From positions 1 to 48,306 of IMG/VR virus record IMGVR_UViG_3300034118_001520: DNA of 48,306 nucleotides. One strand, given 5' to 3'. Origin of the DNA: a virus. A program made the translations under genes and the position numbers. Below the pieces are notes generated by a model, which was not told the origin of the DNA, ran no database searches, and saw only the letters and a list, made by a program, of their open reading frames with translations. Within the stretch, counting starts at the first letter, position 1, and the number at the start of each line of letters is the position of its first letter. Of this stretch, positions 5,177-34,517 are shown piece after piece.

Positions 5177-5223
5177 CTTATTGCACAACCAGCCGCGATA
5201 AAAAATAGGCAAGGAACGCCGCA

Positions 5224-5937: not shown

Positions 5938-5944
5938 TGCCCCG

Positions 5945-5974
5945 TTGACTAGTTTGGGTGGACCGCTGTAGATT
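5945..5974 (+). promoter_or_regulatory. sigma70-like promoter candidate
   Basis: TTGACT (5945-5950), an 18-bp spacer, then TAGATT (5969-5974) give a near-consensus -35/-10 pair in the gap between the PhoH gene and the first methyltransferase. The expected start of transcription lies near 5981, about 20 nt before the ATG at 6001. It would express the methyltransferase/nuclease block by host polymerase. Confidence 0.5.
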
Positions 5975-6000
5975 ACGGCACACCCCGCAACGGAGTACAC

Positions 6001-12208: not shown

Positions 12209-12280
12209 TGCTCGGTGGCGCAACGGTAGCGCGGCGCACTGTTAATGCGATGGTTCTAGGTTCGAATCCTAGCCGAGCAG
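12209..12280 (+). tRNA. tRNA-Asn (anticodon GUU)
   Basis: A 72-nt cloverleaf can be folded: acceptor TGCTCGG with CCGAGCA, D stem GCGC/GCGC with loop AACGGTA, anticodon stem CGCA/TGCG (the fifth pair is a G-A mismatch) with loop CTGTTAA giving anticodon GTT, T stem CTAGG/CCTAG with loop TTCGAAT, and discriminator G. The CCA end is not encoded, so the host enzyme must add it. It reads codons AAC and AAU. It lies 16 bp upstream of an RNA-repair-like gene and is the only tRNA I find in the window. Confidence 0.93.
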
Positions 12281-12296
12281 CGTACAAGGAAAACCC

Positions 12297-14144
12297 ATGA
12301 ACAGCTTATTCAGTCTTGATCCGCTGTTGTGGGAAACATCGTTGGAAGATCAAACCGTGTACCAGCTTGGCAACGCCATTGGCTGGCTTGGCCGCACGGG
12401 AACAAAGACGGCTGCAAATCATTCATTATCTGGCCGCTTGTATCTGGCAAAAAGCGGATGGCTTCTGCTATCTGTGCCAAACGCGTTAGTCCGTGGATTA
12501 TTTGACGCCTTGGTGGCGCCCGGGGCAGAACTGCCGTTGGCCGGCGCGATGAATGTGCCCAACGTTGACGCAGATCTTTTGAACGCCCATATTTCTGTGA
12601 TGACTGCCGACGAAGTGCAGTCGGTGGGTGCCGATAAGATCAATGAGCGTGGCCACAACTTTGGCTACACACTTGGGCCGTTAAAAGAAATAACCGTCCG
12701 AGGCATTAGCGGCGTAAGCAAAGTTTGGGCCGTGCAAGTCTCGAGCCCCGGCTTAACCGCAATTCGCAAGAGTTACGGATTGTCGCCGCTGCCGAAGGGC
12801 CATCCGTTTCACATCACGGTCGCAGTACGAAAAAAGAACGTGCTCGGCGACAATGAGGTACGCAAAGCCGCTGCCGCGGACCCGAGCCAGGTTGTGCTCG
12901 TAAGCGGGCATTCTGGGGCCGGCAAATCTACGCTGTCAAAAGCCCTAGCCGAAAAATTAAAACTGCCGCGCGTATCGGTCGATCAAGATCCCAATTTTCA
13001 AAAGTTTCTTGACGACAATACGCCGGATAATCATTTGCCAGCCGGCTCGCCCAAAGAACAAGACTTTCGGGCACTGATGCGGCAAACGGCTATGCAAACG
13101 TTGGAGAAAAACGACGGGCCCGCCGTGGTCGAGGGTGTGCAGCTGTCGTATCTTCCGCCTGAGATTTTAAGCAAATACAAAAGGGTGCATGTAAACCCGC
13201 CTGTCGAGCAGGCGTACGAACAACGCCTTAGCCGCACAAAACAGCGGTACGAAAAAGACCCCGCAAAAAAATGGACGCCGGACGTCGAGCAAGAAAAAAA
13301 GCGTATTGCCGATCTTGTCTATAAGTTTCACACGCCCACGATTGCGGCGTATGACAAACTTCCGGGCACGCTGAAATACAAACCAGGGCAAGACCTTTCG
13401 GCCCTACTGCAAAAACTGCAAAGCCAGCAGAAACAGGCGGATCTGTTATCTGGTGGCGAAGCCGACGGCAAGGCCGATAATAAGTTTTTGAAAAAAGAAT
13501 TAACTAGGGGAACACGGCATGAGCACGAGCACACCGACAACGATCAAATCGCCAAAGAAATTGCCAAGGATCACTTGTCCGAAGACGCGGCCTACTACGA
13601 CAAGCAAGAAAAAATAGAGAAAGCCGCGCAGCCCGAAATCCTCAAAGACCTTTTAGCGGCAAAAGAACATTCGGATAACAAGCGCTACGACCACAAGGCC
13701 GCGATCATTCGGCGCTTGATGGCACAATCGCCTGATGACTGGGTAATCGACGACGCTAAGCCGAAATACAAAGGCATTACCCACCGGCCCACGAATTTCA
13801 GGCTCCACATAGATCCGACCGTTATTCCGGCTGGCGTAAAAGCCGCGGCGAACAGCGTGTATTTAAATGAACTGCGGAACTCGGTATTTGGCCGCGGTCC
13901 TTTCGCGTATGACATGCAGAAGCCTGTGTTTGAGAACATCCGTAATCACATGGCTGAAATTAAAAGACGGGGCGACTGGATGCTGCAAGCCCAGCGGAAT
14001 AATCAGTCGTATCAGGCGTTTATTAACCCGGCTTATCGCCATCAATTAGCCCTGCAGGCTTTTCACGGCAATATGCCGCAGCCATCAATCGTAGATCAAA
14101 CAATCGAGCGGTTTGGCGGCAACTTTTTAGGAACACCGCGATGA
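12297..14144 (+). CDS. 2H phosphoesterase / P-loop kinase fusion with DUF5661-like C-terminus
   Basis: This 615-aa protein joins several modules. Residues 45-178 form a 2H phosphoesterase with paired HxS/T motifs NAHIS (97-100 region, His98) and FHIT (His172), as in cyclic-phosphodiesterases that open 2',3'-cyclic phosphate on RNA. Residues 199-370 form a P-loop kinase with Walker A GHSGAGKS (204-211) and a uridine-kinase-like VVEGVQL. Residues about 388-442 match the DUF5661-type pattern (EHT...AKEIAKDHL...YYDKQEKIEK). The 2H plus kinase pair is the end-healing half of Trl1-like RNA repair; no ligase is attached. The start is 16 nt after tRNA-Asn. The kinase could instead be zeta-toxin-like. 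Confidence 0.7.
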   Translation: MNSLFSLDPLLWETSLEDQTVYQLGNAIGWLGRTGTKTAANHSLSGRLYLAKSGWLLLSVPNALVRGLFDALVAPGAELPLAGAMNVPNVDADLLNAHISVMTADEVQSVGADKINERGHNFGYTLGPLKEITVRGISGVSKVWAVQVSSPGLTAIRKSYGLSPLPKGHPFHITVAVRKKNVLGDNEVRKAAAADPSQVVLVSGHSGAGKSTLSKALAEKLKLPRVSVDQDPNFQKFLDDNTPDNHLPAGSPKEQDFRALMRQTAMQTLEKNDGPAVVEGVQLSYLPPEILSKYKRVHVNPPVEQAYEQRLSRTKQRYEKDPAKKWTPDVEQEKKRIADLVYKFHTPTIAAYDKLPGTLKYKPGQDLSALLQKLQSQQKQADLLSGGEADGKADNKFLKKELTRGTRHEHEHTDNDQIAKEIAKDHLSEDAAYYDKQEKIEKAAQPEILKDLLAAKEHSDNKRYDHKAAIIRRLMAQSPDDWVIDDAKPKYKGITHRPTNFRLHIDPTVIPAGVKAAANSVYLNELRNSVFGRGPFAYDMQKPVFENIRNHMAEIKRRGDWMLQAQRNNQSYQAFINPAYRHQLALQAFHGNMPQPSIVDQTIERFGGNFLGTPR

Positions 14145-20935: not shown

Positions 20936-21958
20936 ATGACTACGAAACACGCTGAAAATTTGGCCGAGTACGCCGAAGGTGCAAAATTTAACGTAGGCGT
21001 GCCGGCCGACTCGGAAGCCGCGCGGCCGTATCACCAGCAATACGGTAAAGAGTTAATAAATAGCGCTCTCTGGGGGCTTGGGCTTGGTGCTGGTGGTACG
21101 GCACTGTATCACCTTATTAATGGTGCTGGTTCTTCGCAGTTGTCTGAGTTACAAGGACTGCTGCACAACCCGTCTCCCGAAGCGGCCCCGCAAAAAAAGC
21201 AAAAAATCAGTAAACGGAAACAAGTAGCCAAAAAACAAGAGACCAGTTGGCTGCCGAAAAATATGACGATGCCGTCATTTAAGTTAGCCGCGGATGCGTC
21301 TGCCGGCGGACTAATGGCGAACTTTCAAGAATCGCTGTCGAAAAATTTAATCCCGACGCAATTTATCCCTTCTGCCATCTGGCCGACTTTTGACCCAAAT
21401 GCACCACCGAGTCTAAATACTGCACAGCACGGCTGGCGGCAAGCCGCGAACATTATTGCGGCGATGGGCGGTGGCTACGGCGGCATGCAACTTGTTAACT
21501 CGATGTCGGCTGATAAGCGTAAAAAAGATATTGAAGACGAAGTCGAAACGGCTCGCCGTGCTTACTTTAATGCGTTAACCGGCAAAGAAGCGGCGGAACT
21601 TGACAATGTTTACGCCTGTATGAAGCAAGCCGAAGCACCACCGGCACCTCCGGGCTTTTTCTCTCGTATGTCGCAGGGGTTGGGTTTGAGCAAACCAGGC
21701 GGGCCCGGAGCACTTGAAAATGCAGGGATTGCCGCCGCACGTACCGTACAAGAAACTGGCAACAATGCGTGGACCGCCGCTTTGTTAACTGCACTTGGCA
21801 CCGGCGCACTCGGGGCAAAGTACATGTATGACCAGACAAAGTCACGCACCAAGGCGGAGAATTTAATGCGGGCACGCAACTCGAAAGCCCGCCTGCAGGA
21901 ACTGAATCAAACGCCGTACGTAGATCCGGACGCACTCGCCGCCCTTTCAGGGAGGTAA
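20936..21958 (+). CDS. glycine-rich internal-virion/membrane-active protein
   Basis: This 340-aa protein begins MTTKHAENLAEYAEGAKFN, has a Gly/Leu hydrophobic helix at about 43-62 (SALWGLGLGAGGTALYHLI), a basic region (QKKQKISKRKQVAKKQE), a second hydrophobic part near 165-185 (NIIAAMGGGYGGMQLV), and a third near 280-300 (AALLTALGTGALGAKYM). It resembles the other glycine-zipper proteins in the window in plan rather than in sequence. It lies directly before the RNA polymerase gene, which begins 4 nt after its stop. Role inferred as ejected virion protein. Confidence 0.5.
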   Translation: MTTKHAENLAEYAEGAKFNVGVPADSEAARPYHQQYGKELINSALWGLGLGAGGTALYHLINGAGSSQLSELQGLLHNPSPEAAPQKKQKISKRKQVAKKQETSWLPKNMTMPSFKLAADASAGGLMANFQESLSKNLIPTQFIPSAIWPTFDPNAPPSLNTAQHGWRQAANIIAAMGGGYGGMQLVNSMSADKRKKDIEDEVETARRAYFNALTGKEAAELDNVYACMKQAEAPPAPPGFFSRMSQGLGLSKPGGPGALENAGIAAARTVQETGNNAWTAALLTALGTGALGAKYMYDQTKSRTKAENLMRARNSKARLQELNQTPYVDPDALAALSGR

Positions 21959-21961
21959 GCC

Positions 21962-24900
21962 GTGCTGCCCTTAAACGCGCCTCAAGAACAGCCCCGCGAA
22001 TTTGGCGATGTTCCCGCTTTGCGTCAAAGCATTTTTAACAATGCTTTGCAGAGTGCACAGAGCATCGAGCCAATTAAAAACGATCTGTACACGCTGCAAT
22101 TAAACGACGTAGCGTACGACGGCCCGGAAGCGTTTACCAAAGCCGATCAAAAGCGTGCTGTGCTTACACGCGGCAACCTGTCGCGAAAACTCCGTGGCAC
22201 ATGGACGCTGACGGATAACAAGACGAATACGCCCGTCGCCAATCGGCCCGTCACGTTAGCCAGTGTGCCGTACTTAACGGACTCCGGCACATTCGTGAAC
22301 AAGGGCGTCGAATACACGCTGGCTCATCAATTACGTTTGCGTCCCGGCGTGTTTACCAGACAAAAAGACAACGGCGAGTTAGAGGCCCACGTTAACACGC
22401 TTCCAGGTAAAGGCCGTTCGCACCGGTACTACTTAGACCCGCAAACTGGTGTGTTCAAAATTCAAATTGGGCAGGCGCAGATTCCGCTGATGCCGCTTTT
22501 GAAAACTCTTGGTGTCACAGACAAACAACTGCGTGATACCTGGGGTAACGAGATCACTGCTGTCAACATGCAGCAAGGTGACGCCGGAACACTCGACAAA
22601 CTTTATCAGCGCCTTGTGTACTCGCCAGATCCGAAAGCGGATGAACTGGCGAAGATCAAGGCTATTGCCACTGAGTTCAACAAAACAGAGTTCGACGAAG
22701 AAGTCACTAGTCGAACGCTGGGCAAGCCGTACAAAAATTTAACGCCTGACGCCATTCTCGACATCACGAAAAAACTGATTGCCGTTAATCGCAAAGAGGC
22801 GGACTCGGACGATCGAGACAGCATGGCGTTTCAGTCTGTGTTCGGCCCCGAGGACCTGCTGGCAGAGCGTTTCGTTAAAGACCGCTCGGTGCTGCGGCAA
22901 CTGCTCTGGAAAGCCACGGCAAAAAAATCTTTAGACCACATTCCGACTGGCGTGTTCAATAAGTCGATTCAGGCCGCTCTTTTAGGGTCCGGCCTTGGAT
23001 CAAGTCTTGAAGAAATCAACCCGGCCGAAATCTTTGACCACCAAACGCGCGTCACCCGGCTCGGCGAAGGCGGGATCGGCAGCATGGACGCCATCCCGGC
23101 CGAATCGCGCTCGGTGCAGCCAAGCCATTTCGGATTCATTGACTATTTGCGTACGCCGGAATCTGGCAAGGTCGGCGTGGACATGCGCTTTGCCGCCGGG
23201 GCACGAAAAAGCGGGAAAAACTTACATACGTTCGTAATCCCGGTGCGGAATGCAAACACCGGGAAAACCGAATACAAAACGCCGCAAGAACTTACGGACA
23301 TGCCGCTGATGTTCCCCGGTGAAGACAAGTCAGATCTTCCGATGGTTGCGGCACTAGTTGGCGGCAAGATTAAGTATGTACCGCGGAAAGACGCACAGTA
23401 CACCGTTCCGAACATGGACAACACTTTCTCGGCACTTACAAACATGGTGCCGATGAAGTCTATGGTCAAAGGGCAGCGCGTGATCATGGGCGCTCGAATG
23501 TTTACACAGGCTTTGCCGCTCGTAAACGCCGAAGCCCCGCTCGTACAGTCTGCTACAAATGACGACGAGAACATATCGCACGAAGATCTGATCGGCGCCA
23601 AGATGGGCACGGTTAAAGCAGACGAGCCTGCCGAGGTGCTACAGGTTACACCCGACAACATTGTTCTTCGGCTGCGTGACGGTACGAAAAAGACCGTCGA
23701 CTTGTACAACGACATGCCGTTTAATCGGAAGACGTTCTGGACGCAAAAAGCAGCCGTTCAGCCCGGCGACGTGATTAAACCCGGCCAGATTATCGCCACA
23801 AGCAACTTTACCGATAAGAGCGGAGCGGCAGCCCTCGGCATGAATATGCGTGTGGCGTATGTGCCTTTCCGCGGCAAGAACTACGAAGACGCCATCGTGA
23901 TCTCGGAATCCGCGGCCAAGCGCCTAACGTCTGAGCACATGTACCAGAACGAGGCCGAGTGGGACGACAACACGCACGTCGGTAAAAAGGCGTTTGTCAG
24001 TCTGTTTCCCAGTGAGTACGACAAAAAACTGCTCGATAACTTTGACGACCAGGGCGCGATCAAAAAAGGCACGACCGTCAACTTCGGCGACCCGTTAGTG
24101 CTAGTCGCCAAAAAGAAAGAACAGGTGTACGGAAAAGTGCACCGCGGCCGGGCAGGTAGTTTCTCGAATGACACGCTGACCTGGGACCATCATTCGCCAG
24201 GTATTGTCACTGACGTCGAGCACACAAAGAAGGGCGTGTCCGTGGTTGTAAAGAGCCAGGCCCAGATGGAGTCGGGCGATAAGTTAACTGGTCGCTACGG
24301 GGATAAGGGCGTCATTGCGGAAGTTGTGCCGGATAATCAAATGCCGCACGACAAAGACGGCAACCCATTTGAAGTGCTTGTCAGCCCGCTTGGTTTAATT
24401 TCACGCGTGAACCCTGCCCAGATTATTGAAGCAGCGTTGGGTAAAGTCGCGGCTAAGACCGGTAAACCGTACAAGATCAAAGATTTCGACAGTGAGAAAG
24501 ACCTGGTCGAGTTTGCACAGCAGGAACTCGCCAAGCACGGGTTATCTGACACCGAAGAAGTTATTAACCCAGAGAGCGGCCATAAAATTCCTGGAATATT
24601 AACTGGCCAGCGGTTTTTCATGAAACTGCACCACACGGCTGAATCCAAAGGCCAGGGCCGAGCGATGGCGGGTTATACAGCCGAAGGTACACCGGCCAAA
24701 GGCGGCTCTGAGGGTGCAAAGCGTGTCGGCATGCTGGAACTGGGGGCTTTGCTTTCGCACGGTGCTGGCAAAGTAATCCGCGACGCCAAGATGGTACGTG
24801 GCCAAGCGAACCCTGAGTACTGGTCGCAATTCATGGCCGGGTATGACGCTCCGCTGCCCAAGGTTCCACACGTGTATGAGAAGTTCGTAAATCAATTAAA

Positions 24901-26335
24901 GGGTGCTGGCATCAATACTGTGCGGACTGGAACCAAGACGCACATTATGGCCATGACAGACAAAGACGCCGCGGCCCTTACAGGCGACCGGGAACTCAAG
25001 AGCGCCGAGACTGTCGATTGGAAGGGAAATCTCAAGCCCATTAAAGGCGGCTTGTTTGATGAGTCACTTACGGGCGGTCATGGCGGCAGTCGGTGGGCAA
25101 AGATTACGCTTCAAGAGCCGATGCCCAATCCCGTCATGGAAGAACCTATTCGCCGCGTCTTGGGCCTGACAGAGAAGAAATTCCTGGGGATCTTGGCCGG
25201 CCGGGAACAACTGGGTGACGCAACAGGCCCCAAGGCTATTCAACAAGCCCTGGCCAGCATTAATCTCCCTAAAGCCATCGAGCAGGCAAGGGAAGACATC
25301 AAGTCTGGTCGGAAGACAGTTCGGGATGAGGCTGTTCGGCGCCTTGGATTCCTTAAGTCAGCCGAATCGACCAATATCCATCCGAAAGACTGGATGATTA
25401 ATCAGGTTCCAGTTATTCCGCCTGCTTTCCGCCCTGTGTCGACGATGGGGCCAAAGAAGCTCCCGCTCGTAGATAACCCCAATTACCTTTACAAAGAGTT
25501 ATTTGATGCTAATTCAACACTGAAAGAAGCATCTGGGGCCTTATCAGACTATGGCGACGAGCGGCTGGCTGTTTACAACTCAATGAAGGGTGTGACTGGC
25601 TTAGGTGCTCCGACTAACCCCAAGAACGTCGAAAAGAACGTCCAGGGGTTTTTAGCCAAGATCTTCGGCGACAGTCCTAAATTCGGCACCATGCAGCGAA
25701 AACTGCTTTCGAGCACTGTTGACTTGGTCGGCCGCGCTGTCATTACGCCGAACTCTGATCTGGATATGGACGAAGTAGCCCTGCCTGAAGAGAAAGCCTG
25801 GGATATCTACAAGCCGTTTGTTATTCGCGGCCTTGTTCGTCGTGGCTTACCTCGAATGCAGGCACTCCAGGCTGTTGAAGACAAAAACAAAGCCGCCTTC
25901 GACGAATTAAACACCCAGATGAACGCTAAGCCCATTGTAATTAACCGGGCGCCCGTCTTGCACCGCTACGGCGTGATGGCATTTAAACCGCGCTTGACCA
26001 AAAATAAGGTCATGGAGGTTAACCCGGTAATCACGAAGGGGTTTGGTGCAGATTTTGACGGGGACGCTATGCAATATCACGTTCCCAGCACAAATGAGGC
26101 GGCAAAAGAAGCACTTGATAAGATGTTACCTAGTAAGAACTTGTTTAGTACGTCCAGCTTCAAGGCTCACTACGTTCCAAACAAGGATTACCAGACTGGG
26201 CTGTACCTAGCATCGAGTAGAATAAATCAACGCAGTAAACCACGCGTGTTTAAAAGCAAACTAGAGGCTGTGGCGGCTTACCGGCGCGGCGAAATCAACG
26301 TAGACACGCCCGTACACATTGTGGAAGATAAATAG
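21962..26335 (+). CDS. DNA-directed RNA polymerase, beta subunit fused to N-terminal half of beta'
   Basis: This 1457-aa protein carries multisubunit polymerase landmarks. Beta part (1 to about 1010): GDKLTGRYGDKGV (772-784), VSPLGLISRVNPAQIIE (about 807-823), and KLHHTAESKGQGRAMAGYT with the LELGALLSHGAG end of beta. Beta' part (from about 1013): ETVDWKGNLKPIKGGLFDE, VPVIPPAFRP (about 1149), NRAPVLHRYG (1328), and the catalytic FGADFDGDAMQ with Asp residues at 1364, 1366 and 1368 that hold Mg2+. The chain stops soon after GLYLASS, where normal beta' runs on. The Cys zinc ribbon usually following GLFDE is absent. GTG 21962 follows GGAGG. The rest of beta' is encoded at 27225. Confidence 0.95.
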   Translation: MLPLNAPQEQPREFGDVPALRQSIFNNALQSAQSIEPIKNDLYTLQLNDVAYDGPEAFTKADQKRAVLTRGNLSRKLRGTWTLTDNKTNTPVANRPVTLASVPYLTDSGTFVNKGVEYTLAHQLRLRPGVFTRQKDNGELEAHVNTLPGKGRSHRYYLDPQTGVFKIQIGQAQIPLMPLLKTLGVTDKQLRDTWGNEITAVNMQQGDAGTLDKLYQRLVYSPDPKADELAKIKAIATEFNKTEFDEEVTSRTLGKPYKNLTPDAILDITKKLIAVNRKEADSDDRDSMAFQSVFGPEDLLAERFVKDRSVLRQLLWKATAKKSLDHIPTGVFNKSIQAALLGSGLGSSLEEINPAEIFDHQTRVTRLGEGGIGSMDAIPAESRSVQPSHFGFIDYLRTPESGKVGVDMRFAAGARKSGKNLHTFVIPVRNANTGKTEYKTPQELTDMPLMFPGEDKSDLPMVAALVGGKIKYVPRKDAQYTVPNMDNTFSALTNMVPMKSMVKGQRVIMGARMFTQALPLVNAEAPLVQSATNDDENISHEDLIGAKMGTVKADEPAEVLQVTPDNIVLRLRDGTKKTVDLYNDMPFNRKTFWTQKAAVQPGDVIKPGQIIATSNFTDKSGAAALGMNMRVAYVPFRGKNYEDAIVISESAAKRLTSEHMYQNEAEWDDNTHVGKKAFVSLFPSEYDKKLLDNFDDQGAIKKGTTVNFGDPLVLVAKKKEQVYGKVHRGRAGSFSNDTLTWDHHSPGIVTDVEHTKKGVSVVVKSQAQMESGDKLTGRYGDKGVIAEVVPDNQMPHDKDGNPFEVLVSPLGLISRVNPAQIIEAALGKVAAKTGKPYKIKDFDSEKDLVEFAQQELAKHGLSDTEEVINPESGHKIPGILTGQRFFMKLHHTAESKGQGRAMAGYTAEGTPAKGGSEGAKRVGMLELGALLSHGAGKVIRDAKMVRGQANPEYWSQFMAGYDAPLPKVPHVYEKFVNQLKGAGINTVRTGTKTHIMAMTDKDAAALTGDRELKSAETVDWKGNLKPIKGGLFDESLTGGHGGSRWAKITLQEPMPNPVMEEPIRRVLGLTEKKFLGILAGREQLGDATGPKAIQQALASINLPKAIEQAREDIKSGRKTVRDEAVRRLGFLKSAESTNIHPKDWMINQVPVIPPAFRPVSTMGPKKLPLVDNPNYLYKELFDANSTLKEASGALSDYGDERLAVYNSMKGVTGLGAPTNPKNVEKNVQGFLAKIFGDSPKFGTMQRKLLSSTVDLVGRAVITPNSDLDMDEVALPEEKAWDIYKPFVIRGLVRRGLPRMQALQAVEDKNKAAFDELNTQMNAKPIVINRAPVLHRYGVMAFKPRLTKNKVMEVNPVITKGFGADFDGDAMQYHVPSTNEAAKEALDKMLPSKNLFSTSSFKAHYVPNKDYQTGLYLASSRINQRSKPRVFKSKLEAVAAYRRGEINVDTPVHIVEDK

Positions 26336-26351
26336 ACACAGGGAGGCTTTC

Positions 26352-26996
26352 ATGGCGATCAACCCGTATTTAATGTCGATGGCCCGCGATCAATTCGAGA
26401 AGTCGGCCGTCGTTCCGCCTGGCGGCGGTGACCCGTCTATGGGTGCAGCCCCGCCTGTTGATCCTTCTATGGGCGGTGCGCCGCCTATGGACCCGGCTGC
26501 TATGGGTGCCGTTCCACCCGCCGGCCCGGCTGCACCGGTTGATCCGGCCACCGCGATGGCTGCAATGGGAGGTGCTCCCGCCCCCGCTGCGATGCCTGCG
26601 GCTGCGCCCGCTCCCGCTGCGCCGGCCGGCGGCCAGAAGTTAAAGCCTGAGCAGATGATGCAGATGATCGATATGCGGCTGTACAACATGCAACAGCAGT
26701 TAACATCGATTATGAACGCCATGGGCGTGCAAGTCGCTCCTGAGTCGCTTGTTCTTCCTCCGGGCACGACTGGTGCCCCGCCTGCCGAATCGGCTCTCCC
26801 CGGCGGTCCTATGGCTCCGCCTCCGCCGCAAGACCCTGCCGCGGCTGGTATGCCTCCCGGTGGTATGCCTCCCGAGGCTATGCCGCCTGAGATGGCGAAA
26901 GGTGCCAACTGGAATGCCGGTCAGATTTTAGATCTGCATACCAAGGCGTCGGCGATCAAGGCGTTACGGAGGAGTTTAGAGAGCAATGCGGGTTAA
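26352..26996 (+). CDS. Pro/Ala/Met-rich protein lying between the two polymerase genes
   Basis: This 214-aa protein starts MAINPYLMSMARDQFEKSAV, has a long Pro/Ala/Gly/Met-rich region, one ordered-looking helix in the middle (PEQMMQMIDMRLYNMQQQL, about 105-123), then more low complexity (GMPPGGMPPEAMPPEMAKG) and a C-terminal helix (ASAIKALRRSLES). GGAGG sits 6 nt before ATG 26352. The MPPEA units recur in the scaffold-like protein at 37033. No family is recognised. Its place in the polymerase operon suggests a polymerase-associated or packaging adaptor protein, but this is unproven. Confidence 0.55.
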   Translation: MAINPYLMSMARDQFEKSAVVPPGGGDPSMGAAPPVDPSMGGAPPMDPAAMGAVPPAGPAAPVDPATAMAAMGGAPAPAAMPAAAPAPAAPAGGQKLKPEQMMQMIDMRLYNMQQQLTSIMNAMGVQVAPESLVLPPGTTGAPPAESALPGGPMAPPPPQDPAAAGMPPGGMPPEAMPPEMAKGANWNAGQILDLHTKASAIKALRRSLESNAG

Positions 26997-27225
26997 AACG
27001 CAATTTAACCTGCAACCAGCGGACACGCCGGCCCATAGCGTCGTAATTGAAGACGACATGGGTAATCCAATTATCGTGGCAACACAACTGACCGAGTCAA
27101 TTGTGTTTTCCACGGTAAATGACCCCGACTTCCAGTCCGTGCTTCGATCTCTCGGCATTACTAAGACTGTAAAAATAACAGAATTTAAACCCAAGCCGCT
27201 TCAAGATATTATCTGGACACCGTGA
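26986..27225 (+). CDS. small protein coupled to the polymerase beta' C-terminal gene
   Basis: This 79-aa protein (MRVKTQFNLQPADTPAHSVV...) is beta-rich and ends EFKPKPLQDIIWTP. It overlaps the previous gene by 11 nt and the beta' gene by the TGATG junction at 27223-27227, so three genes are read in tight coupling. No motif is recognised. Candidates by location are an omega-like assembly factor or a specificity factor, though it lacks any omega signature I can see. Confidence 0.5.
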   Translation: MRVKTQFNLQPADTPAHSVVIEDDMGNPIIVATQLTESIVFSTVNDPDFQSVLRSLGITKTVKITEFKPKPLQDIIWTP

Positions 27226-29108
27226 TGTTAAAAACCACGCTTGGTCAAATTCTGATTAACGACGCACTCCCGGAAGATCTGCGGGACTACGATCGTGTCT
27301 TAGATAAAAAGACGATGGGTGCCTTGGCGACAAAACTAGCCGAGCAGTACCCAGACAAATATCGAGATGTCATGAAGCGGCTGCACGACGTCGCTCACGA
27401 GTCGGCCCATACGACCGGCGGCCTGTCTTTCGGGCTCAAAGATATTAAGCAGACGCTTGCCGCTCGCCATGCCCAGATAAAGGCTCGTGCCGGTCTGCGT
27501 GCGATCATGGCGAACGGCAAATTCTCCGAAGAACAGCGAACGCAGAAGATCCTAGAACTAGCCTCAACTATTCAGCAGAAACTAGTAGAGGACGTTTATG
27601 CCGAGGCTAAAGGTAATGATAATCCTTTGATGCACCAGGTGTTGGGGTCTGGTGTCGGCAATAAATACTCGCTGAATTCGATCATTGGTGCCGACATGCA
27701 ATATGTCGACCACAAAAACGATCCGATTCCTTTGCCGGTGCTGCACAGTTACAGCCGAGGCTTAAGACCCGCCGAGTATTTTGCGGGCGCCTTCGGCGCC
27801 CGCAAGGGTGTAATTGATACTAAGACGGCTACGGCAGACGCCGGCTTTTACGGCAAGCAATTGACCCAAATGGCGCACCGCCTGCTCGTTACCGCCGACG
27901 ATGACGATGACGAAGAATGGAACAGCACAGCGAGCGAGCGTGGCTTCCCTACAGACGTCGATGACCCGGATAACGAAGGTGCCCTGCTTTCGCGACCTGC
28001 GGGGCCGTATAAACGAAACACGGTCCTGACGCCCAAAATCCTGCAAGACATTAAAAAAATGGGCGTCAAGGATATTCTTGTCCGCAGCCCGACTGTGGGC
28101 GGTCCGAGTGACGGCGGAGTTTTCGCTAAAGACGTCGGATTTCGCGAAAAGGGCCGGCTACCGCCGGCCGGTGACTACGTTGGAATTGCAGCAGTTCAGG
28201 CGCTCTCCGAGCCGGTATCGCAGGGGCAATTGTCGTCGAAGCATTCTGGCGGTGTCGGCGGTGCCGGGTCTATTTCTGGCTTCAAGGCGTTAAATGCCTT
28301 GGTACAGGTGCCGAAGACATACCCGGATGGCGCCGCTCACGCCCAGCGCGACGGCAAAGTGCAGGAGATCCGCCAAGCACCGCAAGGCGGCGTATACGTC
28401 ACCATCGACGGCGAAGAACACTACGTCGGGGCCGACCGCACTGTCGCCGTTAAAAAGGGCGACACACTTGAAGCCGGCGACGCGATTTCAGACGGCATGC
28501 CGAATCCGGCCGAGATTGTTAAGCACAAGGGTATTGGCGAGGGCCGGCGTTACTTTACGCAAGCTATGCGGCAAGTTATGAAAAACAGCGGCATGAGCCC
28601 GCACCGCCGAAATATCGAATTGCTGTCGCGAGGCATTGTGAATCATGTCCGCATGCTCGACGAATACGGCGACCACGCGCCAGAAGACGTTGTGCCGTAT
28701 TCGATGCTGGAGCGCAACTGGCAGCCGCGCCCGGGGAGCGTTGCGGGCAACCCTACAACGTTAACAGGGCATTATCTTGAGCGGCCCGTGCTGCATTATT
28801 CTATCGGCACAAAAATAAGTAAATCTGTCAACGAAAACTTAAAAAAGTACAACATCGCGAGCGTGCAGGCGCACAAAGAACCCCCACCGTTTCAGCCTGA
28901 AATGATTCGCGGAATGTCAAACATCTCACACGACCCGGACTGGATGACGCGCATGCTGGGGTCGTATCAAGAAAAAGGCCTGCTGAACAGCGTACACCGC
29001 GGTTTAACGAGCGACGCGGCCGGCAGCAGTTACGTCCCGGCTTTAGCCCGCGGCGAGCAATTTGGCGTTACAGGTGTTACAAGCGGGTGGAAGCCGGAAG
29101 GCGTTTAA
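27225..29108 (+). CDS. DNA-directed RNA polymerase, C-terminal half of beta'
   Basis: This 627-aa protein takes up beta' where the 1457-aa protein leaves off. LKTTLGQILINDALPEDL matches the bacterial TTxGRxxFNxxLPE segment. GLRPAEYFAGAFGARKGVID and TKTATADAGFYGKQLTQMAH (about 179-219) are the bridge helix, and GDYVGIAAVQALSEPVSQGQ followed by LSSKHSGG (about 316-343) is the trigger loop. The segment between them, ILVRSPTVGGPSDGGVFAKD, aligns with the usual zinc-binding part but has no cysteines. An acidic insert (DDDDDEE) lies at about 226. ATG 27225 is chosen from the TGATG overlap. Confidence 0.93.
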   Translation: MLKTTLGQILINDALPEDLRDYDRVLDKKTMGALATKLAEQYPDKYRDVMKRLHDVAHESAHTTGGLSFGLKDIKQTLAARHAQIKARAGLRAIMANGKFSEEQRTQKILELASTIQQKLVEDVYAEAKGNDNPLMHQVLGSGVGNKYSLNSIIGADMQYVDHKNDPIPLPVLHSYSRGLRPAEYFAGAFGARKGVIDTKTATADAGFYGKQLTQMAHRLLVTADDDDDEEWNSTASERGFPTDVDDPDNEGALLSRPAGPYKRNTVLTPKILQDIKKMGVKDILVRSPTVGGPSDGGVFAKDVGFREKGRLPPAGDYVGIAAVQALSEPVSQGQLSSKHSGGVGGAGSISGFKALNALVQVPKTYPDGAAHAQRDGKVQEIRQAPQGGVYVTIDGEEHYVGADRTVAVKKGDTLEAGDAISDGMPNPAEIVKHKGIGEGRRYFTQAMRQVMKNSGMSPHRRNIELLSRGIVNHVRMLDEYGDHAPEDVVPYSMLERNWQPRPGSVAGNPTTLTGHYLERPVLHYSIGTKISKSVNENLKKYNIASVQAHKEPPPFQPEMIRGMSNISHDPDWMTRMLGSYQEKGLLNSVHRGLTSDAAGSSYVPALARGEQFGVTGVTSGWKPEGV

Positions 29109-29187
29109 TGTAGGATAATAGGCTGTAACACGCTAAAGTAGTAAACAGTCAGCGTTTCGTTACGTTTAGTGCCGCATGGAGGTGGCC

Positions 29188-31581
29188 GTGTACAACAAAA
29201 GCAAAAAAGAAGCGTCGTGGCAGCACTGGCTGAAGGTAGTTAGGTCTCACGACCGCAGCCAAGTCAAACAGGCCGAAATTGGCGGCCGTGGCGATGACAC
29301 TTCTTTTGAACAGGCGTTTTCTAACCTGGCCCACGCTTACTTGCGTGACTCAGCGCCCAAATTGCTTGATCACGAAGTCGGTTTCCAATTATTGGACCGC
29401 AACCGCGAGAACACAAAAGCCGTTGGCGTATTTGCTTTTAAAGTCGGTGCCCAGTGGCTTTACGCCCCGGTATTCTTTTTAAACGGCGACTTGAAAGGGC
29501 ACGAACTCCTGTACATCAAAAATCAGGATATGTTCGTACCGCTCAAAGAAAACTGGATCAACTATTTAATCAATCGAAAGCCGAACATCCTTGGCAACGG
29601 CGTCGATCGAAATCTGTCGAATCTTGGCCAACGGCAGCCGGACTTCACGCAACTTTCCCGCAGCCCGTCAAAGTTCGGCTCGGCGCAGCCCACGCTCAAA
29701 GAGATGATGACTGCGGCCATGCCGGCATTTGCGAAATCGGCCACGATGAATACCGCCCAGGCTTTTGCCGAACTTGGCAGTGCGATCAACCTGCCGGCGT
29801 TCTTAAAAGAAGCCAGCATGCAAATGTTAAGCACGCTGGTTAACAGCTGCAAGAAAGCCCCCGAACTCGCCGAGGCCATCGACTCGTTCCACGGTTTAAA
29901 TATCGTCAAAGAGGCCGTAGCACAGGCGTCGGCTCGCGTAAGCCGCACAAAAGTGGCGAGCGTGTTGTCTGAGGCTCCCAAAACGCCAGCGGCTGAAAAG
30001 TCGCTTGAAGTCATTACGCTCGATACGACGGTGCAGACTAAGTTACCGCCGGGTCACACAGAAGAAGACCAGGAAAAACTTTTGCGGGACGGCGTGCTGA
30101 TTCTCGACAAGCGGGATCGCGACAACGTTTCGATTCCCTACCATATCCAAGTCGAGAAGCGGCTGTTTAATCCGACCGAGAGCGGTCTGTACGAAATCCT
30201 CGTCAAGCCGGGCAATATTGAACGCTGCTACGTGGCCGTATTCCCGATGGGTGCCGCCAAGCGGTCTAACTTCGTCACGGTCGTTCGCATTGACGGTAAA
30301 GCCGACTGGATTAACACACGGGCTGACCATGTTTTTGCACTTTCCCGCGTAGAGGGCGAAGAGTTTGACAAATGGTATGACGGTCTTCCGGAAGCCAAAA
30401 GCCTTCCGTCCGGTCGCTCGCGCGTAATGCTGCTTAACAAGCGCGGCGACACTACCGCCCCGGTTCGGAGCCTTCGCGAATATGGCGAAACAAATGGCTC
30501 GACGGTGTACGAAGTGCATCTCGAGGATTACACAAAGTTTCCGCCCAAGGGCAGCATTTCTCCGTGTTGCTACTCTGACCCGCTTAATTACGACAAGTAC
30601 CGCGACGGCGTGCGGCTGCATTTAAACGGTAAAAAGGGTTCGTCGCTGCGTGCCAGCATGGGCGACATCTTTGTGCCGGAAGGGTTCAAGATGCTGAAGT
30701 GCGAGCCGGGCGAAGACGACGTCGATTCGGCTGAAGGGCAGGGTGCATGCGGTTGCGGCGAAAGCAAAGATCCGCCGCTGATGCCGGGCAACCTGCTTGA
30801 CGCCCAGATGGAGTTGATGCAAAAAACATCGTCTTTAACTGTGACAAATAACGGTCACGCTGTAGAGATTCACAGCGGGCAAAAACAACTCGTTGAAAAA
30901 GAACTGTCTGAAAAGCAGGCACTGGTGTCGTTAGTACGGCAGCACGGTTTACGAGAAGAAGCCGCCCGCGACATTCTGAAACAAGCGGCTGATAAACGAA
31001 AGTTTGAGTGCCGCGTAAAATATGCCGAGCCGTACGGCAGCCCGATGATGATCAACAGTGCCCCGAACGCTCCGAGTGATCCCGGCGCGGTCATGGGCGG
31101 CGAAAGCATCATGGGCACGAGCGTTCCAACACAACTCGGTATTGACGTCGGTATGCCTGTGTCGGGCATGGCTGCTAGTCAGACGGATCGCAGCGTTTAC
31201 AACCCGAACACTGAGTTAGATCAAAAAGATTTACGCTCGGTAATCGACGCCGCTCAAAGCGGTCAACGCGAAGTATTTGACACAGCGATGATTGGCTCCA
31301 TGTTGCGAACTGTACGCGACGACGGCATGGTAGATCGCTACATGGGTGAACTGACAAAGGGCCTCGACAAACTGGGGCGCATCTTGTTTATGTTTTATTG
31401 GCATGGCGACCGGTTTGCCGATCGTTATGGCAAGGCCGACATGCCGGAACTGGAAGATTCGCTGCGTAACGCATTTGAGATGCTTGGCGACGTCATCTTG
31501 TTCCTGAAGCAAAAGACAATCGAGCCGTATCCAGAAGAAGCCAACAGCGACGTCGACTTAGGTCCCGTTGCCAACTCTTAA
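29188..31581 (+). CDS. large virion-type protein of unknown function
   Basis: This 797-aa protein follows the polymerase operon. Its first 130 residues form a mixed domain (VGVFAFKVGAQWLYAPVFFL, LLYIKNQDMFVPL), the middle (about 270-520) is beta-rich, there is a Cys cluster GACGCGE near 545, and the C-terminal 130 residues contain a helical segment ELTKGLDKLGRILFMFYWHG. GTG 29188 is chosen because GGAGGTGG lies just upstream; ATG 29176 would place the start inside that site. It is in the structural block, so a head or portal-vertex role is plausible, but I recognise no portal motif. Confidence 0.55.
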   Translation: MYNKSKKEASWQHWLKVVRSHDRSQVKQAEIGGRGDDTSFEQAFSNLAHAYLRDSAPKLLDHEVGFQLLDRNRENTKAVGVFAFKVGAQWLYAPVFFLNGDLKGHELLYIKNQDMFVPLKENWINYLINRKPNILGNGVDRNLSNLGQRQPDFTQLSRSPSKFGSAQPTLKEMMTAAMPAFAKSATMNTAQAFAELGSAINLPAFLKEASMQMLSTLVNSCKKAPELAEAIDSFHGLNIVKEAVAQASARVSRTKVASVLSEAPKTPAAEKSLEVITLDTTVQTKLPPGHTEEDQEKLLRDGVLILDKRDRDNVSIPYHIQVEKRLFNPTESGLYEILVKPGNIERCYVAVFPMGAAKRSNFVTVVRIDGKADWINTRADHVFALSRVEGEEFDKWYDGLPEAKSLPSGRSRVMLLNKRGDTTAPVRSLREYGETNGSTVYEVHLEDYTKFPPKGSISPCCYSDPLNYDKYRDGVRLHLNGKKGSSLRASMGDIFVPEGFKMLKCEPGEDDVDSAEGQGACGCGESKDPPLMPGNLLDAQMELMQKTSSLTVTNNGHAVEIHSGQKQLVEKELSEKQALVSLVRQHGLREEAARDILKQAADKRKFECRVKYAEPYGSPMMINSAPNAPSDPGAVMGGESIMGTSVPTQLGIDVGMPVSGMAASQTDRSVYNPNTELDQKDLRSVIDAAQSGQREVFDTAMIGSMLRTVRDDGMVDRYMGELTKGLDKLGRILFMFYWHGDRFADRYGKADMPELEDSLRNAFEMLGDVILFLKQKTIEPYPEEANSDVDLGPVANS

Positions 31582-31591
31582 TAGGTGAACT

Positions 31592-31975
31592 ATGCCCAGC
31601 ACAGTTTGGTCAGGCAGTAAAGAGTTTACGACGAATGCCGGGTCGGCAACGACGGTGGCCATTCCAATGCCGCATCGTGGCGTTTTAAAAGGCTACAACC
31701 TCGTCGAGGCGGCTGGTGGTGCAACAGGTAACTTCACTGCCACGCTGTATTCGAGCAAGCAGGATAAGGCGCCGAACAACGCGTTACCGGCAGACACATT
31801 CAAAGTGCTGACGTTTGACCAGGCTGCGGCTTTTAAAAACGACTTAAACGTGTCGTATCTCAATCGTGACGGCTCGCCGACTAATCCGCAGCGCTACCTG
31901 TATCTTAAAATTACGACGGCGGCAGTTAAAAACTTTGTGTTCTCTGTCACCGTAGACACGCCGACGCTGCGCTAA
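31592..31975 (+). CDS. small beta-rich virion protein
   Basis: This 127-aa protein is made of short strands (SATTVAIPMPHRGVLKGYNL, ATLYSSKQDKAP, RYLYLKITTAAVKNFVFSVT), consistent with a jelly-roll or beta-sandwich such as a head decoration or fibre-base protein. There is no signal or membrane segment. GGTGAAC precedes ATG 31592 weakly. Its stop overlaps the next start (TAATG). Function is inferred only from context. Confidence 0.5.
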   Translation: MPSTVWSGSKEFTTNAGSATTVAIPMPHRGVLKGYNLVEAAGGATGNFTATLYSSKQDKAPNNALPADTFKVLTFDQAAAFKNDLNVSYLNRDGSPTNPQRYLYLKITTAAVKNFVFSVTVDTPTLR

Positions 31976-32904
31976 TGCTAAACGCCCTTCGCGATAACCC
32001 TCGACGGTCGCCTAGTTGGCGGTGGCTGCGGGCGGTAAATATTGATGCCGGCGGGCCCAAGGCGTCTCGCAAATTAGACGGTGCGGAAGGCTTTAAGTGG
32101 GTACGCCGTGCTAGCCGGCTGAAACGGCATTTTGAGTTAGCTGGCAGCAGGCCGCAAGCATTGTACGCCCTGCATCTCCGCGACCCGGAATTGTTCTGGG
32201 CCCACTCACTGTGGGTGGAGGATAAAGCACCGTCAAAGTGGGCCGTGGAAGCCCGTGTATTAGCAGGAGAAACGGACGCCGAGATTGCTGCTAAGGTCGG
32301 CACGACGCCAGAGATTATTAACGCGTATATCAACGTATTTTTTGATGTTCGCGAAAAGATGGCCCACACCGATTATGTTGTGAATGTCGTGATGGGTGAT
32401 GCCGTTACTCGCGGATTGCAGGAACGACACTACGACTTGCTCTGGAAGTTAATGGGTTATCACGGCGGCCCGATGGTGCTAGATGCCGTCATTAACAGAT
32501 TTTGCCCGGTCAGCCGCCCGCAAAACCCTGAGAACGTCTCTGGCTTTTTCCAGGATTTTGCAATTAGTGCCATGAAGTACAAGGCGGCACTGGCGACGCT
32601 TACCGTGCAGGCCAACACGCATACACAATTACCGCTTATCGACTCGTTCGCCAAATATGTTGAAATTGAAAGAACGACAGAAAACGCTACTAAAGCGCAG
32701 GTATCCATTGTGGAGAATATCGGGGCTATGTTGACGGCCCTGCCATTCCGCGTTGGGACGAAACTGGATTCTGAAGCTATAAAAATGGTACCCTTTGATA
32801 GTGGCGCGGCAGAATTAAACAACAGCGAAATGATCATTGTGGCGACTGGTGGTAAACTAGAAAATCAGCCCCTGATCGAAAATCTGCGATTCCCGGGAGA
32901 ATAA
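31975..32904 (+). CDS. HTH-containing phage protein, small-terminase-like candidate
   Basis: This 309-aa protein has a helix-turn-helix at about residues 86-112 (ARVLAGETDAEIAAKVGTTP then EIINAYINVFFDVREKM), similar to a common phage protein placed beside terminase or head genes. The remainder is largely helical. The HTH could bind packaging-site DNA as in small terminase subunits, but no large terminase is in the window, so this stays a guess; a transcription factor is the alternative. It is coupled to the gene before it by TAATG and the next gene starts 2 nt after its stop. Confidence 0.5.
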   Translation: MLNALRDNPRRSPSWRWLRAVNIDAGGPKASRKLDGAEGFKWVRRASRLKRHFELAGSRPQALYALHLRDPELFWAHSLWVEDKAPSKWAVEARVLAGETDAEIAAKVGTTPEIINAYINVFFDVREKMAHTDYVVNVVMGDAVTRGLQERHYDLLWKLMGYHGGPMVLDAVINRFCPVSRPQNPENVSGFFQDFAISAMKYKAALATLTVQANTHTQLPLIDSFAKYVEIERTTENATKAQVSIVENIGAMLTALPFRVGTKLDSEAIKMVPFDSGAAELNNSEMIIVATGGKLENQPLIENLRFPGE

Positions 32905-32906
32905 CA

Positions 32907-34517
32907 ATGCAGACATTGAGCAAAGAAGCCGAACAAAAGTTAATTGCTGCGATTGAAAAAGCTGCAGCATTAGTCAACGAAGGGCTATCGCCAAACGCTG
33001 CAATCATTAAGAGTGCCGCCGCCGCCGATATTCCCGCGGGGCATATTAACCTTATGGTGCATGCGTACAACACAGGCCGCACCACCAAGCAACGCGAACA
33101 AGGCGAAAACACGACTGAAAAGTCGGCTGATTTCCAACTGGCTGACGCCCCCACGGTTTTAGATGCTCTGTACCCCAAGGCTGTTAAAACGTCGGCAGAA
33201 ATCGTGCGGCAAGAAATTGTATCTACGGACTACGCCGTTTCGCCTGCCGGCATGCTCGCTCGCCGCGTGGCTGAGCAGGAGAAGGCCGCAGCGGCTCAAG
33301 TGGCATTACCGGCAAAGACATATGTGCCGTATCCGCGTGACGAGCAATTCGCCGCTGAGCGGGCCTATAGCGTCAAACGTGCCGAGCAGTTGGCTGACGA
33401 GGAGCGGCGCCGCATCGCTACGGCTGCGTACTCTAAAGCCGCCGCGGCGCTTGACGGCGTAGTTGAGTATTTCCGCACTCCGGGAAACATGTCGTTCGCC
33501 GACGCTGTTCGTCAGGTTGGCTTACGTTTCGGCGACGAGGGTGTTTCGGTGCTGCACAAGGTGGCCGAAGTTTATCCTCAGTTTAAAAAGCAAGCGGCAA
33601 CGAACAACAACCACTTTGGCGATAACCCCCTGTACGCCCGCGTACAAAATGTTGTTATTCTGACGGAAGAATATGTCAAAGCGAGCGCGGACTTAAAAAA
33701 AAAGACGCCAGTAATTAGTAATAAGAAAGTAGCCACTTTTCTTACAGGTTCGGTGCTGCAGGCGCCGGTAGACTTCTCTAACGGCGTAACTTTAAAGCAA
33801 GCAGCAGGCCCGCGTGGCGGGCATTTTCCTGTATCTGCCGGGCCAGGATTACCGCCGAGTCTTGCGGCGACATTATTCGGCATTAACCCGCCTGCTCCGC
33901 CTGCACCGCCTGCACCGCCGGCAAAGCCATCTCCTAAGCCCGAAAAGCCGGAAGAGAAGAAGCCGCAGGGCAACCGTGGCGGCGGTGGCGGCGGTAATCG
34001 TGGTGGTGGCGGTGGCGGCAAGGGTGGTGCCAGCAATTACGAAAAAAACTTACAAACGTTTTTTGAGAGTGCTAACCGGCCAGTCAACACTGTTGGTGAA
34101 CAAATTGGTCTTGCTGGTGCTGCCTCGCCAGCCGGGATGGCTAAAAGCATTCTTGGCTTAGACAAAGAGCCGCGCGACATTGGTTTAAAGATGTTGAAAG
34201 AGATCTCCTCGCCCGACCACGAACTGACGCTTAAAAATATTCGCGCTCAAGCCACGCTTCACGACTTGATGCTTAATGACGACGTCATCTCTGGTTATAG
34301 CCCTCAAGAAGTAGCATTGGCGTTTAATGAAGTAGCCGACGCGGCGCCAAACGTCGTGCAGTCCCCGGCTGTCTTACGTGCCATGCTTCGGAAACGTTTA
34401 GAGGCCGGACAACTTGCCGATTTTGACGCGAAACAATTACTTGAAATGGATAAACTCAAAGCCGAGCGGGATCAAACAATGCTTTCGGCCCGCAAACTCC
34501 AAGAAGAACTTGCGTAA
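32907..34517 (+). CDS. helical virion protein with Pro- and Gly-rich linkers
   Basis: This 536-aa protein starts MQTLSKEAEQKLIAAIEKAA, a helical region, with coiled-coil character in AYSVKRAEQLADEERRRIA (about 150-170). At about 325-375 there is a Pro/Ala/Lys stretch followed by a Gly/Arg run (GGGGGGNRGGGGGGKGG), an RGG-like linker, then a second helical domain to the end. The plan suggests a flexible two-domain protein of the virion interior. No family is known to me. Two nt separate it from the upstream gene and 3 nt from the next. Confidence 0.5.
   Translation: MQTLSKEAEQKLIAAIEKAAALVNEGLSPNAAIIKSAAAADIPAGHINLMVHAYNTGRTTKQREQGENTTEKSADFQLADAPTVLDALYPKAVKTSAEIVRQEIVSTDYAVSPAGMLARRVAEQEKAAAAQVALPAKTYVPYPRDEQFAAERAYSVKRAEQLADEERRRIATAAYSKAAAALDGVVEYFRTPGNMSFADAVRQVGLRFGDEGVSVLHKVAEVYPQFKKQAATNNNHFGDNPLYARVQNVVILTEEYVKASADLKKKTPVISNKKVATFLTGSVLQAPVDFSNGVTLKQAAGPRGGHFPVSAGPGLPPSLAATLFGINPPAPPAPPAPPAKPSPKPEKPEEKKPQGNRGGGGGGNRGGGGGGKGGASNYEKNLQTFFESANRPVNTVGEQIGLAGAASPAGMAKSILGLDKEPRDIGLKMLKEISSPDHELTLKNIRAQATLHDLMLNDDVISGYSPQEVALAFNEVADAAPNVVQSPAVLRAMLRKRLEAGQLADFDAKQLLEMDKLKAERDQTMLSARKLQEELA

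What the first reader, a model, noticed from the sequence alone, without database searches (positions are those of the whole stretch)
21962..29108. A phage multisubunit RNA polymerase with an unusual fuse-and-split architecture
Beta is fused to the N-terminal half of beta', and beta' is then split at a clean domain border: the first chain ends soon after GLYLASS, and the second opens with TTLGQILINDALPED, a segment that in bacterial beta' follows closely. Natural beta::beta' fusions are known in Helicobacter and Wolbachia, and split beta/beta' chains in phiKZ-like phages; a fusion combined with this split point is different from both as far as I know. Catalytic DFDGD, bridge helix and trigger loop are kept, so it should be active.
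Basis: partly seen in the sequence, partly recalled or inferred. Interest (0 to 1): 0.9.

Follow-up and report, generated by a model that had tools for sequence, protein, structure and literature searches.

The report
Phage RNA polymerase, fused then split
A large group of mostly uncultured phages carries its own version of the cell's main transcription enzyme, with its two big subunits joined into one chain and that chain then cut at a different place, and it probably packs this enzyme into the virus particle together with its own start-site factor.

Summary
Window 21962-26335 encodes one 1457-aa chain, beta joined to the N-terminal part of beta'; 27225-29108 encodes the rest of beta' (bridge helix, trigger loop). 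It is no frameshift: among 125 distinct full-length phage homologues counted, 125 have beta joined to the start of beta' in one ORF and 97 have this two-chain form; so do cultured Salmonella phage Arash and Vibrio phage D69. Another 19 are single-chain beta-beta' enzymes. With bacteria as outgroup the two-chain phages form one clade (100/100), so the shortest history is one fusion, then one split. The split falls in the inter-domain linker that also breaks in cyanobacteria (about 10-20 residues away) and, per PMC7598289, phiKZ-type phages; the combination is what is unusual. Alpha and omega were not detected in 29 of 29 records, but a divergent sigma-like protein was in 28 of 29. In Arash virions chain 1 has the most spectra, and chain 2 and this sigma were found too (PMC10585845). 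Best reading: an alpha- and omega-free, sigma-dependent, probably virion-packaged RNA polymerase. Activity, sigma function and packaging in the window's own phage are inferred.

The parts
21950..21956 (+). ribosome-binding site (GGGAGGT) of chain 1
   Evidence: read directly
21962..26335 (+). chain 1: beta fused to the N-terminal, active-site part of beta' (1457 aa)
   Evidence: model of residues 342-1457
21962..24916 (+). beta part of chain 1 (about residues 1-985)
   Evidence: PDB beta alignments end at about 982-1003; border approximate
24917..26332 (+). beta' N-terminal part of chain 1 (about residues 986-1457), without the first zinc-binding domain
26051..26065 (+). active-site DFDGD (residues 1364-1368)
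26319..26996 (+). intervening ORF rich in Pro/Ala/Gly, 225 aa from a TTG (ATG possible downstream), function unknown
   Evidence: homologue in 11 of 11 window-clade loci examined
26986..27225 (+). intervening ORF, 79 aa, function unknown; its stop overlaps the ATG of chain 2
   Evidence: homologue in 11 of 11 window-clade loci examined
27225..29108 (+). chain 2: C-terminal part of beta' (GTG at 27222 also possible)
   Evidence: model
27768..27875 (+). bridge helix (chain 2 residues 183-218, GTG numbering)
28182..28253 (+). trigger-loop region (chain 2 residues 321-344, GTG numbering)
29176..31581 (+). homologue of Arash virion protein Gp218
   Evidence: profile match E 4.9e-73; Gp218 in Arash virions
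31975..32904 (+). homologue of Arash Gp219 (annotated hypothetical)
   Evidence: profile match E 3e-17
32907..34517 (+). homologue of Arash virion protein Gp220 (and weakly Gp221)
   Evidence: profile match E 2.6e-63

Best explanation
This is a bacterial-type DNA-dependent RNA polymerase reduced to two polypeptides. Chain 1 carries beta and the active-site half of beta', so both halves of the catalytic double barrel lie in one polypeptide; chain 2 carries the bridge helix, trigger loop and the rest of beta'. The two chains assemble without being rejoined. The beta-beta' fusion stands in for the alpha dimer that brings the subunits together in bacteria, because the family encodes no recognisable alpha or omega. 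A divergent sigma-like protein encoded elsewhere in the genome directs promoter recognition, and core plus sigma travel in the virion and are injected to start phage transcription. The lineage first joined beta to beta' and later broke beta' in a linker between domains. Shown here by computation: the architecture, its recurrence, the two-chain clade, the motifs, the lack of recognisable alpha and omega, the sigma-like gene. Shown by others for the relative Arash: both chains and its sigma-like protein detected in purified virions. Inferred: activity, sigma function, packaging in the window's phage, early-gene role, alpha replacement.
For: Architecture in 125 of 125 (fusion) and 97 of 125 (two-chain) distinct full-length phage sequences. 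Two-chain clade 100/100 and phages against bacteria 100/100. Catalytic residues kept in 11 of 11 aligned phages (Asp triad, beta Lys1065 and Lys1073, beta' His936). Confident models that match beta (Z 32-38) and beta' (Z 28-31) chains. Alpha PF01000 in 0 of 29 records (control 13 of 14) and omega PF01192 in 0 of 29 (control 14 of 14). Sigma-like profile in 28 of 29 records; Sigma70_r3 above its gathering score in 4 of 4 proteins tested, Arash Gp10 among them. Arash virions: Gp206 3516 spectra, the most of any protein, Gp216 1210, Gp10 467.
Against: No activity data. The Arash authors allow that abundant enzymes were carried over into the particle preparation, whose 116 proteins include ribonucleotide reductases. 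The sigma-like protein is only weakly similar to known sigmas (hhalign probability 71.8%, E 3.5e-5; best PDB match 2.5e-5), and Sigma70_r2 was found in 3 of 19 records only, none of the 16 IMG/VR ones. Most records searched for alpha and omega are of unknown completeness. Trigger-loop Arg933 is Ser. The sigma gene lies outside the window. The two chains were not modelled as a complex, and chain 2 matches have rmsd 6.8-8.9.
Confidence: 0.65

Rival explanations
1. The same two-chain enzyme is not a virion polymerase: it is made during infection and transcribes middle or late genes, and the Arash virion signal is carry-over.
For: The Arash authors name this possibility, and their list holds clearly non-structural enzymes. 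A sigma-like partner suits a promoter-switching role as well. Arash and D69 have another, more canonical sigma.
Against: Gp206 has more spectra than the major capsid protein (3516 against 1333), and the second Arash sigma Gp196 is not named anywhere in the paper's main text, by a term search. The genes sit directly upstream of homologues of Arash virion proteins.
Confidence: 0.3
2. The two-chain form is older, and the single-chain phages arose by re-fusion.
For: L299-type single chains lack most of the linker, as a joining deletion might leave. Support for the deepest phage nodes is weak (35-39 bootstrap), and in the 104-taxon FastTree the two-chain clade had support of only 0.148.
Against: Bacteria other than the cyanobacterial group have an unsplit beta', so re-fusion needs extra steps; six single-chain seeds (L313, L314, L315, L319, L325, L327) keep a continuous linker; the two-chain phages form one clade.
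Confidence: 0.15
3. The chains are rejoined after translation by trans-splicing, so the mature enzyme is one chain.
For: Relatives carry inteins in the RNAP genes, and L208 has an apparent split intein that breaks chain 1.
Against: Neither the end of chain 1 nor the start of chain 2 in the window matches an intein model in Pfam or NCBIfam, and the aligned ends in relatives are short and unlike intein ends.
Confidence: 0.02
4. Frameshift, assembly error or decayed gene.
For: None found for the window's break; L305 against L306 does look like such an error inside beta.
Against: The break recurs at one place in independent contigs and in cultured phages; the pieces are 0.5-5.9 kb apart in 104 of 105 split cases, always on one strand; active-site residues are kept.
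Confidence: 0.01

Closest known systems
Salmonella phage Arash Gp206 + Gp216 (OQ632216, PMC10585845) and Vibrio phages D69, D181, D148
   Same: beta fused to beta'N, separate beta'C, homologous downstream genes (Arash, D69), sigma-like protein (Arash, D69)
   Different: about 31-32% identity over chain 1; second zinc site kept (Arash, D69); annotated as beta and beta' or as hypothetical; D181 has chain 1 broken by a homing endonuclease gene, and D148 looks the same by its hit row
Fused rpoB-rpoC of Helicobacter and Wolbachia relatives (NCBIfam PRK09603, PRK14844; host names recalled)
   Same: beta joined to beta' in one ORF
   Different: beta' unsplit there; the window scores far below the curated cut-offs (319.7 of 5372 and 270.7 of 4632 bits)
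phiKZ/AR9-type jumbo-phage RNAPs
   Same: beta' split after the barrel domain, no alpha or omega, a virion form (PMC7598289)
   Different: beta also split and not fused to beta'; no sigma in that phage group (PMC7824862, passages)
Cyanobacterial RpoC1/RpoC2
   Same: beta' split in the same linker
   Different: not fused to beta; border about 10-20 residues further along
mReC phages (PMC7481178)
   Same: phage beta and beta' alignable with bacterial ones, forming a clade apart from cells
   Different: fusion or split of mReC enzymes is not mentioned in the text seen; overlap with this lineage unverified
crAss-like and YonO-type single-polypeptide RNAPs
   Same: both barrels in one phage polypeptide
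   Different: much more divergent; per PMC7481178 the crAss enzyme is not recognised by the cellular beta and beta' profiles

Membership tests
Multisubunit (two-barrel) DNA-dependent RNA polymerase | beta and beta' homology over both barrels, Asp triad, basic residues of the beta barrel, bridge helix and trigger loop | tested here: met
Multisubunit (two-barrel) DNA-dependent RNA polymerase | template-directed RNA synthesis | not testable with these tools
   needs an assay
Multisubunit (two-barrel) DNA-dependent RNA polymerase | alpha and omega subunits, as in cellular enzymes | tested here: not met
   0 of 29 records for PF01000 and for PF01192; many records of unknown completeness; very divergent forms could be missed
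Fused rpoBC (NCBIfam PRK09603, PRK14844) | one uninterrupted beta-beta' chain above the family cut-off | tested here: not met
   two ORFs; scores far below the cut-offs
phiKZ-type jumbo-phage RNAP | separate, split beta chains not fused to beta' | tested here: not met
   beta is whole and fused to beta'N in chain 1
phiKZ-type jumbo-phage RNAP | beta' split after the barrel domain | tested here: met
   position of the phiKZ split taken from PMC7598289, not aligned here
mReC lineage | place inside the mReC clade of the RNAP tree | not tested
   the list of mReC contigs is in supplementary files that could not be opened
mReC lineage | Gp23-type capsid PF07068, reported for 8 mReC capsids | tested here: inconclusive
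   0 of 29 records, but no control genome rang either
Sigma-70 family (accessory protein of the lineage) | sigma-70 regions 2, 3 and 4 | tested here: inconclusive
   region 3 above cut-off in 4 of 4 proteins; region 4 above cut-off in 1 of these 4 and below it in 2; region 2 only below cut-off, in Arash Gp10; hhalign 71.8%
Virion RNA polymerase | present in the particle | not testable with these tools
   mass-spectrometric detection published for Arash only

The most novel reading that the evidence does not exclude
One phage lineage carries a complete transcription system in its virions: a bacterial-type core of one or two polypeptides with its own sigma and no alpha or omega, in which beta-beta' fusion replaced the alpha-dimer scaffold, and in which the border between chains then moved (one, two or three chains, with inteins and an apparent split intein cutting chain 1 in some members). 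It would be a natural series showing how chain borders in a universal enzyme move while the fold stays.
Probability: 0.4. Interest if true: 0.85.

Novelty: new variant of a known kind. Interest (0 to 1): 0.7.

Why it matters
The two large RNA polymerase subunits are among the most conserved proteins in life and their chain borders rarely move. Here one lineage shows single-chain, fused-and-split and re-split forms, so the order of events can be read from a tree. That bears on whether split phage polymerases are primitive remnants, as PMC7824862 proposes for phiKZ-type enzymes, or derived: in this family the split looks derived. A core of one or two chains without alpha or omega, plus a small sigma, would also make a very compact bacterial-type transcription system for the laboratory.

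Tried and rejected
Frameshift, assembly error or pseudogene: rejected by recurrence. Split intein at the beta' border: no intein model matches the window chains. Relatives in bacterial genomes with the chain 2 profile: none of 213 pattern matches was confirmed. Sigma by Pfam Sigma70_r2: 3 of 19 records, none of the window's clade; region 4 then rang in 15 of 24 records, over the cut-off in 5, and led to the profile. Gp23 capsid as a link to mReC: no hit, control silent. phiKZ: none of the five genes of its 50-99 kb stretch that I inspected holds a DxDGD motif, so its split was not aligned here. OR844998, OR846602, MT836236 and MT838503 are filed as phage but carry bacterial-type unfused RNAP; the first three served as bacterial rows, the fourth was left out. 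Lack of cysteine as a mark of injected polymerases: one literature search gave nothing. In the structural look at the chain 1 model all 50 rows shown are beta-type chains over its first 650 residues or so; the beta'N half is not covered there and rests on sequence. In the residue table the Actinomadura row also shows gaps at the first zinc site, unlike the other three bacterial rows; I did not find out why.

Counting rules: of 306 loci scored, a locus was counted only with at least 80% of all profile columns and over 60% of each of three regions; bacteria, four remote phages and phiKZ were set aside, leaving 163 loci and 125 distinct sequences. Loci known to repeat earlier contigs (L070-L113, L150-L219) were left out, and with them the contigs that only those lists brought in, such as L208, L211 and L213-L219. 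Loci were fetched by similarity to this family, so the shares are not abundances.
Full report
OBSERVATION. Chain 1 (21962-26335, 1457 aa) matches beta families and then N-terminal families of beta'; chain 2 (27222 or 27225 to 29108) matches beta' domain 5. On the NCBIfam model of a fused beta/beta' enzyme (PRK09603) the best stretch of chain 1 runs to position 1942 and that of chain 2 starts at 1945; on the rpoC model TIGR02386 the ends are 534 and 547. The break is close to lossless. Chain 1 has a good ribosome-binding site before its GTG; the ATG of chain 2 overlaps the stop of a small preceding ORF. Two small ORFs lie between the chains, with homologues in 11 of 11 window-clade loci examined.

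HOW COMMON IT IS. The first scan of IMG/VR gave 55 loci. In 46 of them the second chain is a separate ORF downstream, in 9 the contig ends first, and in none are the two joined. Cultured relatives are few: of 50,697 phage records four hold a place that covers at least 80% of chain 1, namely Salmonella phage Arash and Vibrio phages D69, D181 and D148. In Arash and D69 the fusion is one ORF and beta'C a separate one; in D181 the fusion chain is itself broken by a homing endonuclease gene, and D148 looks the same by its hit row. Searches with two single-chain relatives and one more two-chain relative put the same four phages at the top; other rows with high coverage there are bacterial-type enzymes. 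Further scans brought in more distant groups. After removal of partial loci and identical sequences 125 distinct phage enzymes remain: 97 two-chain, 19 single-chain, 9 others. Of the 9, three (L247, L248, L260) are cut again about 100 profile positions into beta', giving three chains; six (L004, L058, L251, L305, L316, L328) have an extra break inside beta. In all 125 the end of beta and the start of beta' lie in one ORF. L305 and L306 look like one phage type with and without a stop, so a sequence error is likely there.

WHERE THE SPLIT LIES. Single-chain phages such as L313, L315, L319 and L327 run through a linker ending in TTVGR or a similar motif, as bacteria do; the window and other two-chain phages break just before it. 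The cyanobacterial border lies about 10-20 residues further along, and that of phage YerA41 roughly 50; YerA41's relative Carin-5 has an unsplit beta'. This linker has therefore been broken more than once, and the split point alone is not new. PMC7598289 (passages and section 7 read) says that phiKZ-type beta' breaks after the barrel domain, at the place used by cyanobacteria; I did not align phiKZ.

ORDER OF EVENTS. A tree of 42 sequences and 1587 columns under a site-heterogeneous model gives phages against bacteria 100/100 and the two-chain phages as one clade 100/100, while single-chain phages form a weakly resolved grade (bootstrap 35-39 at the deep nodes). Two quicker IQ-TREE runs agree on the two-chain clade. 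FastTree with 104 taxa found the same grouping but with support of only 0.148 for the two-chain clade. With bacteria as outgroup one fusion at the base and one later split is the shortest history. Branches are long and several rows have odd composition, so the root inside the phages is not firm. The L299 group lacks most of the linker, which could also mark a re-fusion.

ANATOMY. In 11 of 11 aligned phages the three aspartates, beta Arg678, Lys1065, Lys1073 and Arg1106 and beta' Arg352, Arg425 and His936 are kept (positions counted on the Salmonella proteins). In the window Arg933 of the trigger loop is Ser and Asn458 is Gly. The first beta' zinc domain is missing in 11 of 11 phages; three of the four bacterial rows show it. 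The second zinc site is kept in 8 of 11 (Arash, D69, L271, L292 and four single-chain phages) and lost in the window, L014 and L140. The window's enzyme has no cysteine in 2085 residues, where the composition of the other window ORFs used would give about 25. Models of chain 1 residues 342-1457 and of chain 2 have mean pLDDT 82 and 83. The first matches beta chains with Z 32-38 and rmsd 3.2-4.5 over its first 650 residues or so; the second matches beta' chains with Z 28-31 but rmsd 6.8-8.9, so domain orientation is uncertain. The chains were not modelled together.

PARTNERS. The alpha family PF01000 and the omega family PF01192 were found in 0 of 29 records, with working controls (13 of 14 and 14 of 14); completeness of most records is unknown. 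A sigma-like protein (open frames of about 240-340 aa) is in 28 of 29, missing only from a 92-kb single-chain record. It matches Sigma-70 region 3 above the gathering score in 4 of 4 proteins tested; its best PDB match is SigA of 8h3v at E 2.5e-5. Its Arash orthologue is Gp10. In G001 and G002, whose RNAP is 100% identical to the window's over both chains, the gene lies some 36 kb or more from the RNAP genes, beyond what corresponds to the window. Arash and D69 also carry a second, more canonical sigma.

VIRION EVIDENCE. PMC10585845 (passages read) reports 116 proteins in Arash particles. Gp206, the fusion chain, has the most spectra (3516; 128 unique peptides), Gp216 has 1210, Gp10 467, the major capsid protein 1333. 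Divided by lengths of 1525, 606 and 234 aa the first three are 2.3, 2.0 and 2.0 spectra per residue, which fits similar amounts but is a crude measure. The authors allow that abundant enzymes were carried over. The passages seen call Gp206 'subunit beta' and Gp216 'beta'' and mention neither fusion nor split. The window's genes downstream of chain 2 are homologues of Arash Gp218 and Gp220, both found in virions.

INSERTS. Many relatives carry in-frame inserts of about 150-525 aa in the RNAP chains, at conserved motifs such as the beta barrel, the DFDGD motif, the bridge helix and the trigger loop. Most look like inteins; L146 passes the Pfam intein cut-off and L217 and L218 match NCBIfam intein models, while the inserts of L139 and L141 and one in L225 and L226 do not look like inteins. 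L208 has an apparent split intein: 98 residues at the end of one ORF and 42 at the start of the next; the C-terminal part passes its NCBIfam cut-off (22.4 over 15.6 bits) and the N-terminal part stays below (20.7 under 24.5).

LITERATURE. Searches of the held open-access library listed no paper that I could recognise as describing fused-and-split or full-length single-chain beta-beta' phage enzymes of this kind; most listings were not opened, and subscription papers were not searched. PMC7481178 (parts 1-3 of 6 plus passages) describes the mReC phages; its filter (hits to both COGs, at least 800 aa, NADxDGD) could admit some fused chains, so overlap is possible and unverified. PMC7824862 (12 of 42 places) states that no sigma is found in phiKZ-group phages and argues that their split enzymes are ancient.

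VERDICT. A real, conserved and probably functional fused-and-split RNA polymerase; undescribed as an architecture as far as these searches go; a variant of a known kind of enzyme; most interesting as one member of a series from one to three chains with its own sigma.

Noticed in passing
L015, L031, L036, L037, L058, L142, L143, L146, L194, L195, L211, L213, L214, L217-L219, L222-L225: In-frame, mostly intein-like inserts in the RNAP chains of many relatives, often at the most conserved motifs, up to several per enzyme.
   Followed up: partly
L208:1-2490 and 4404-6164: Apparent natural split intein that breaks chain 1 inside beta, with about 1.9 kb between the halves; L214/L216 look similar.
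   Followed up: partly
window 21962-26335 and 27225-29108: The two chains hold no cysteine in 2085 residues; the median is also 0 in the two locus groups nearest the window, against 4-6 in other phage groups and 12 in bacteria. Unexplained.
   Followed up: partly
L247, L248, L260: Three-chain relatives in which the fused chain is cut again about 100 positions into beta', not at the native beta/beta' border.
   Followed up: partly
L288:7972-10680: beta' continuous across the usual split site; the ORF begins with what looks like an intein end joined at the DFDGD motif; the rest of the enzyme was not found on the locus.
   Followed up: partly
window 9763-10797: Actin-like protein of the Volactin family (PF25216, E 1.9e-61); no homologue among the phage loci examined.
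   Followed up: no
window 12297-14144; L127, L204: 2H phosphoesterase plus P-loop ATPase-like protein; in L127/L204 a homologue of part of it is fused to the C-terminus of chain 2.
   Followed up: partly
L336-L341: Contigs of 118-276 kb with more distant RNAP in separate pieces and beta as its own ORF.
   Followed up: no
window 12209-12281: tRNA-Asn(GTT), the only tRNA found in the window.
   Followed up: no
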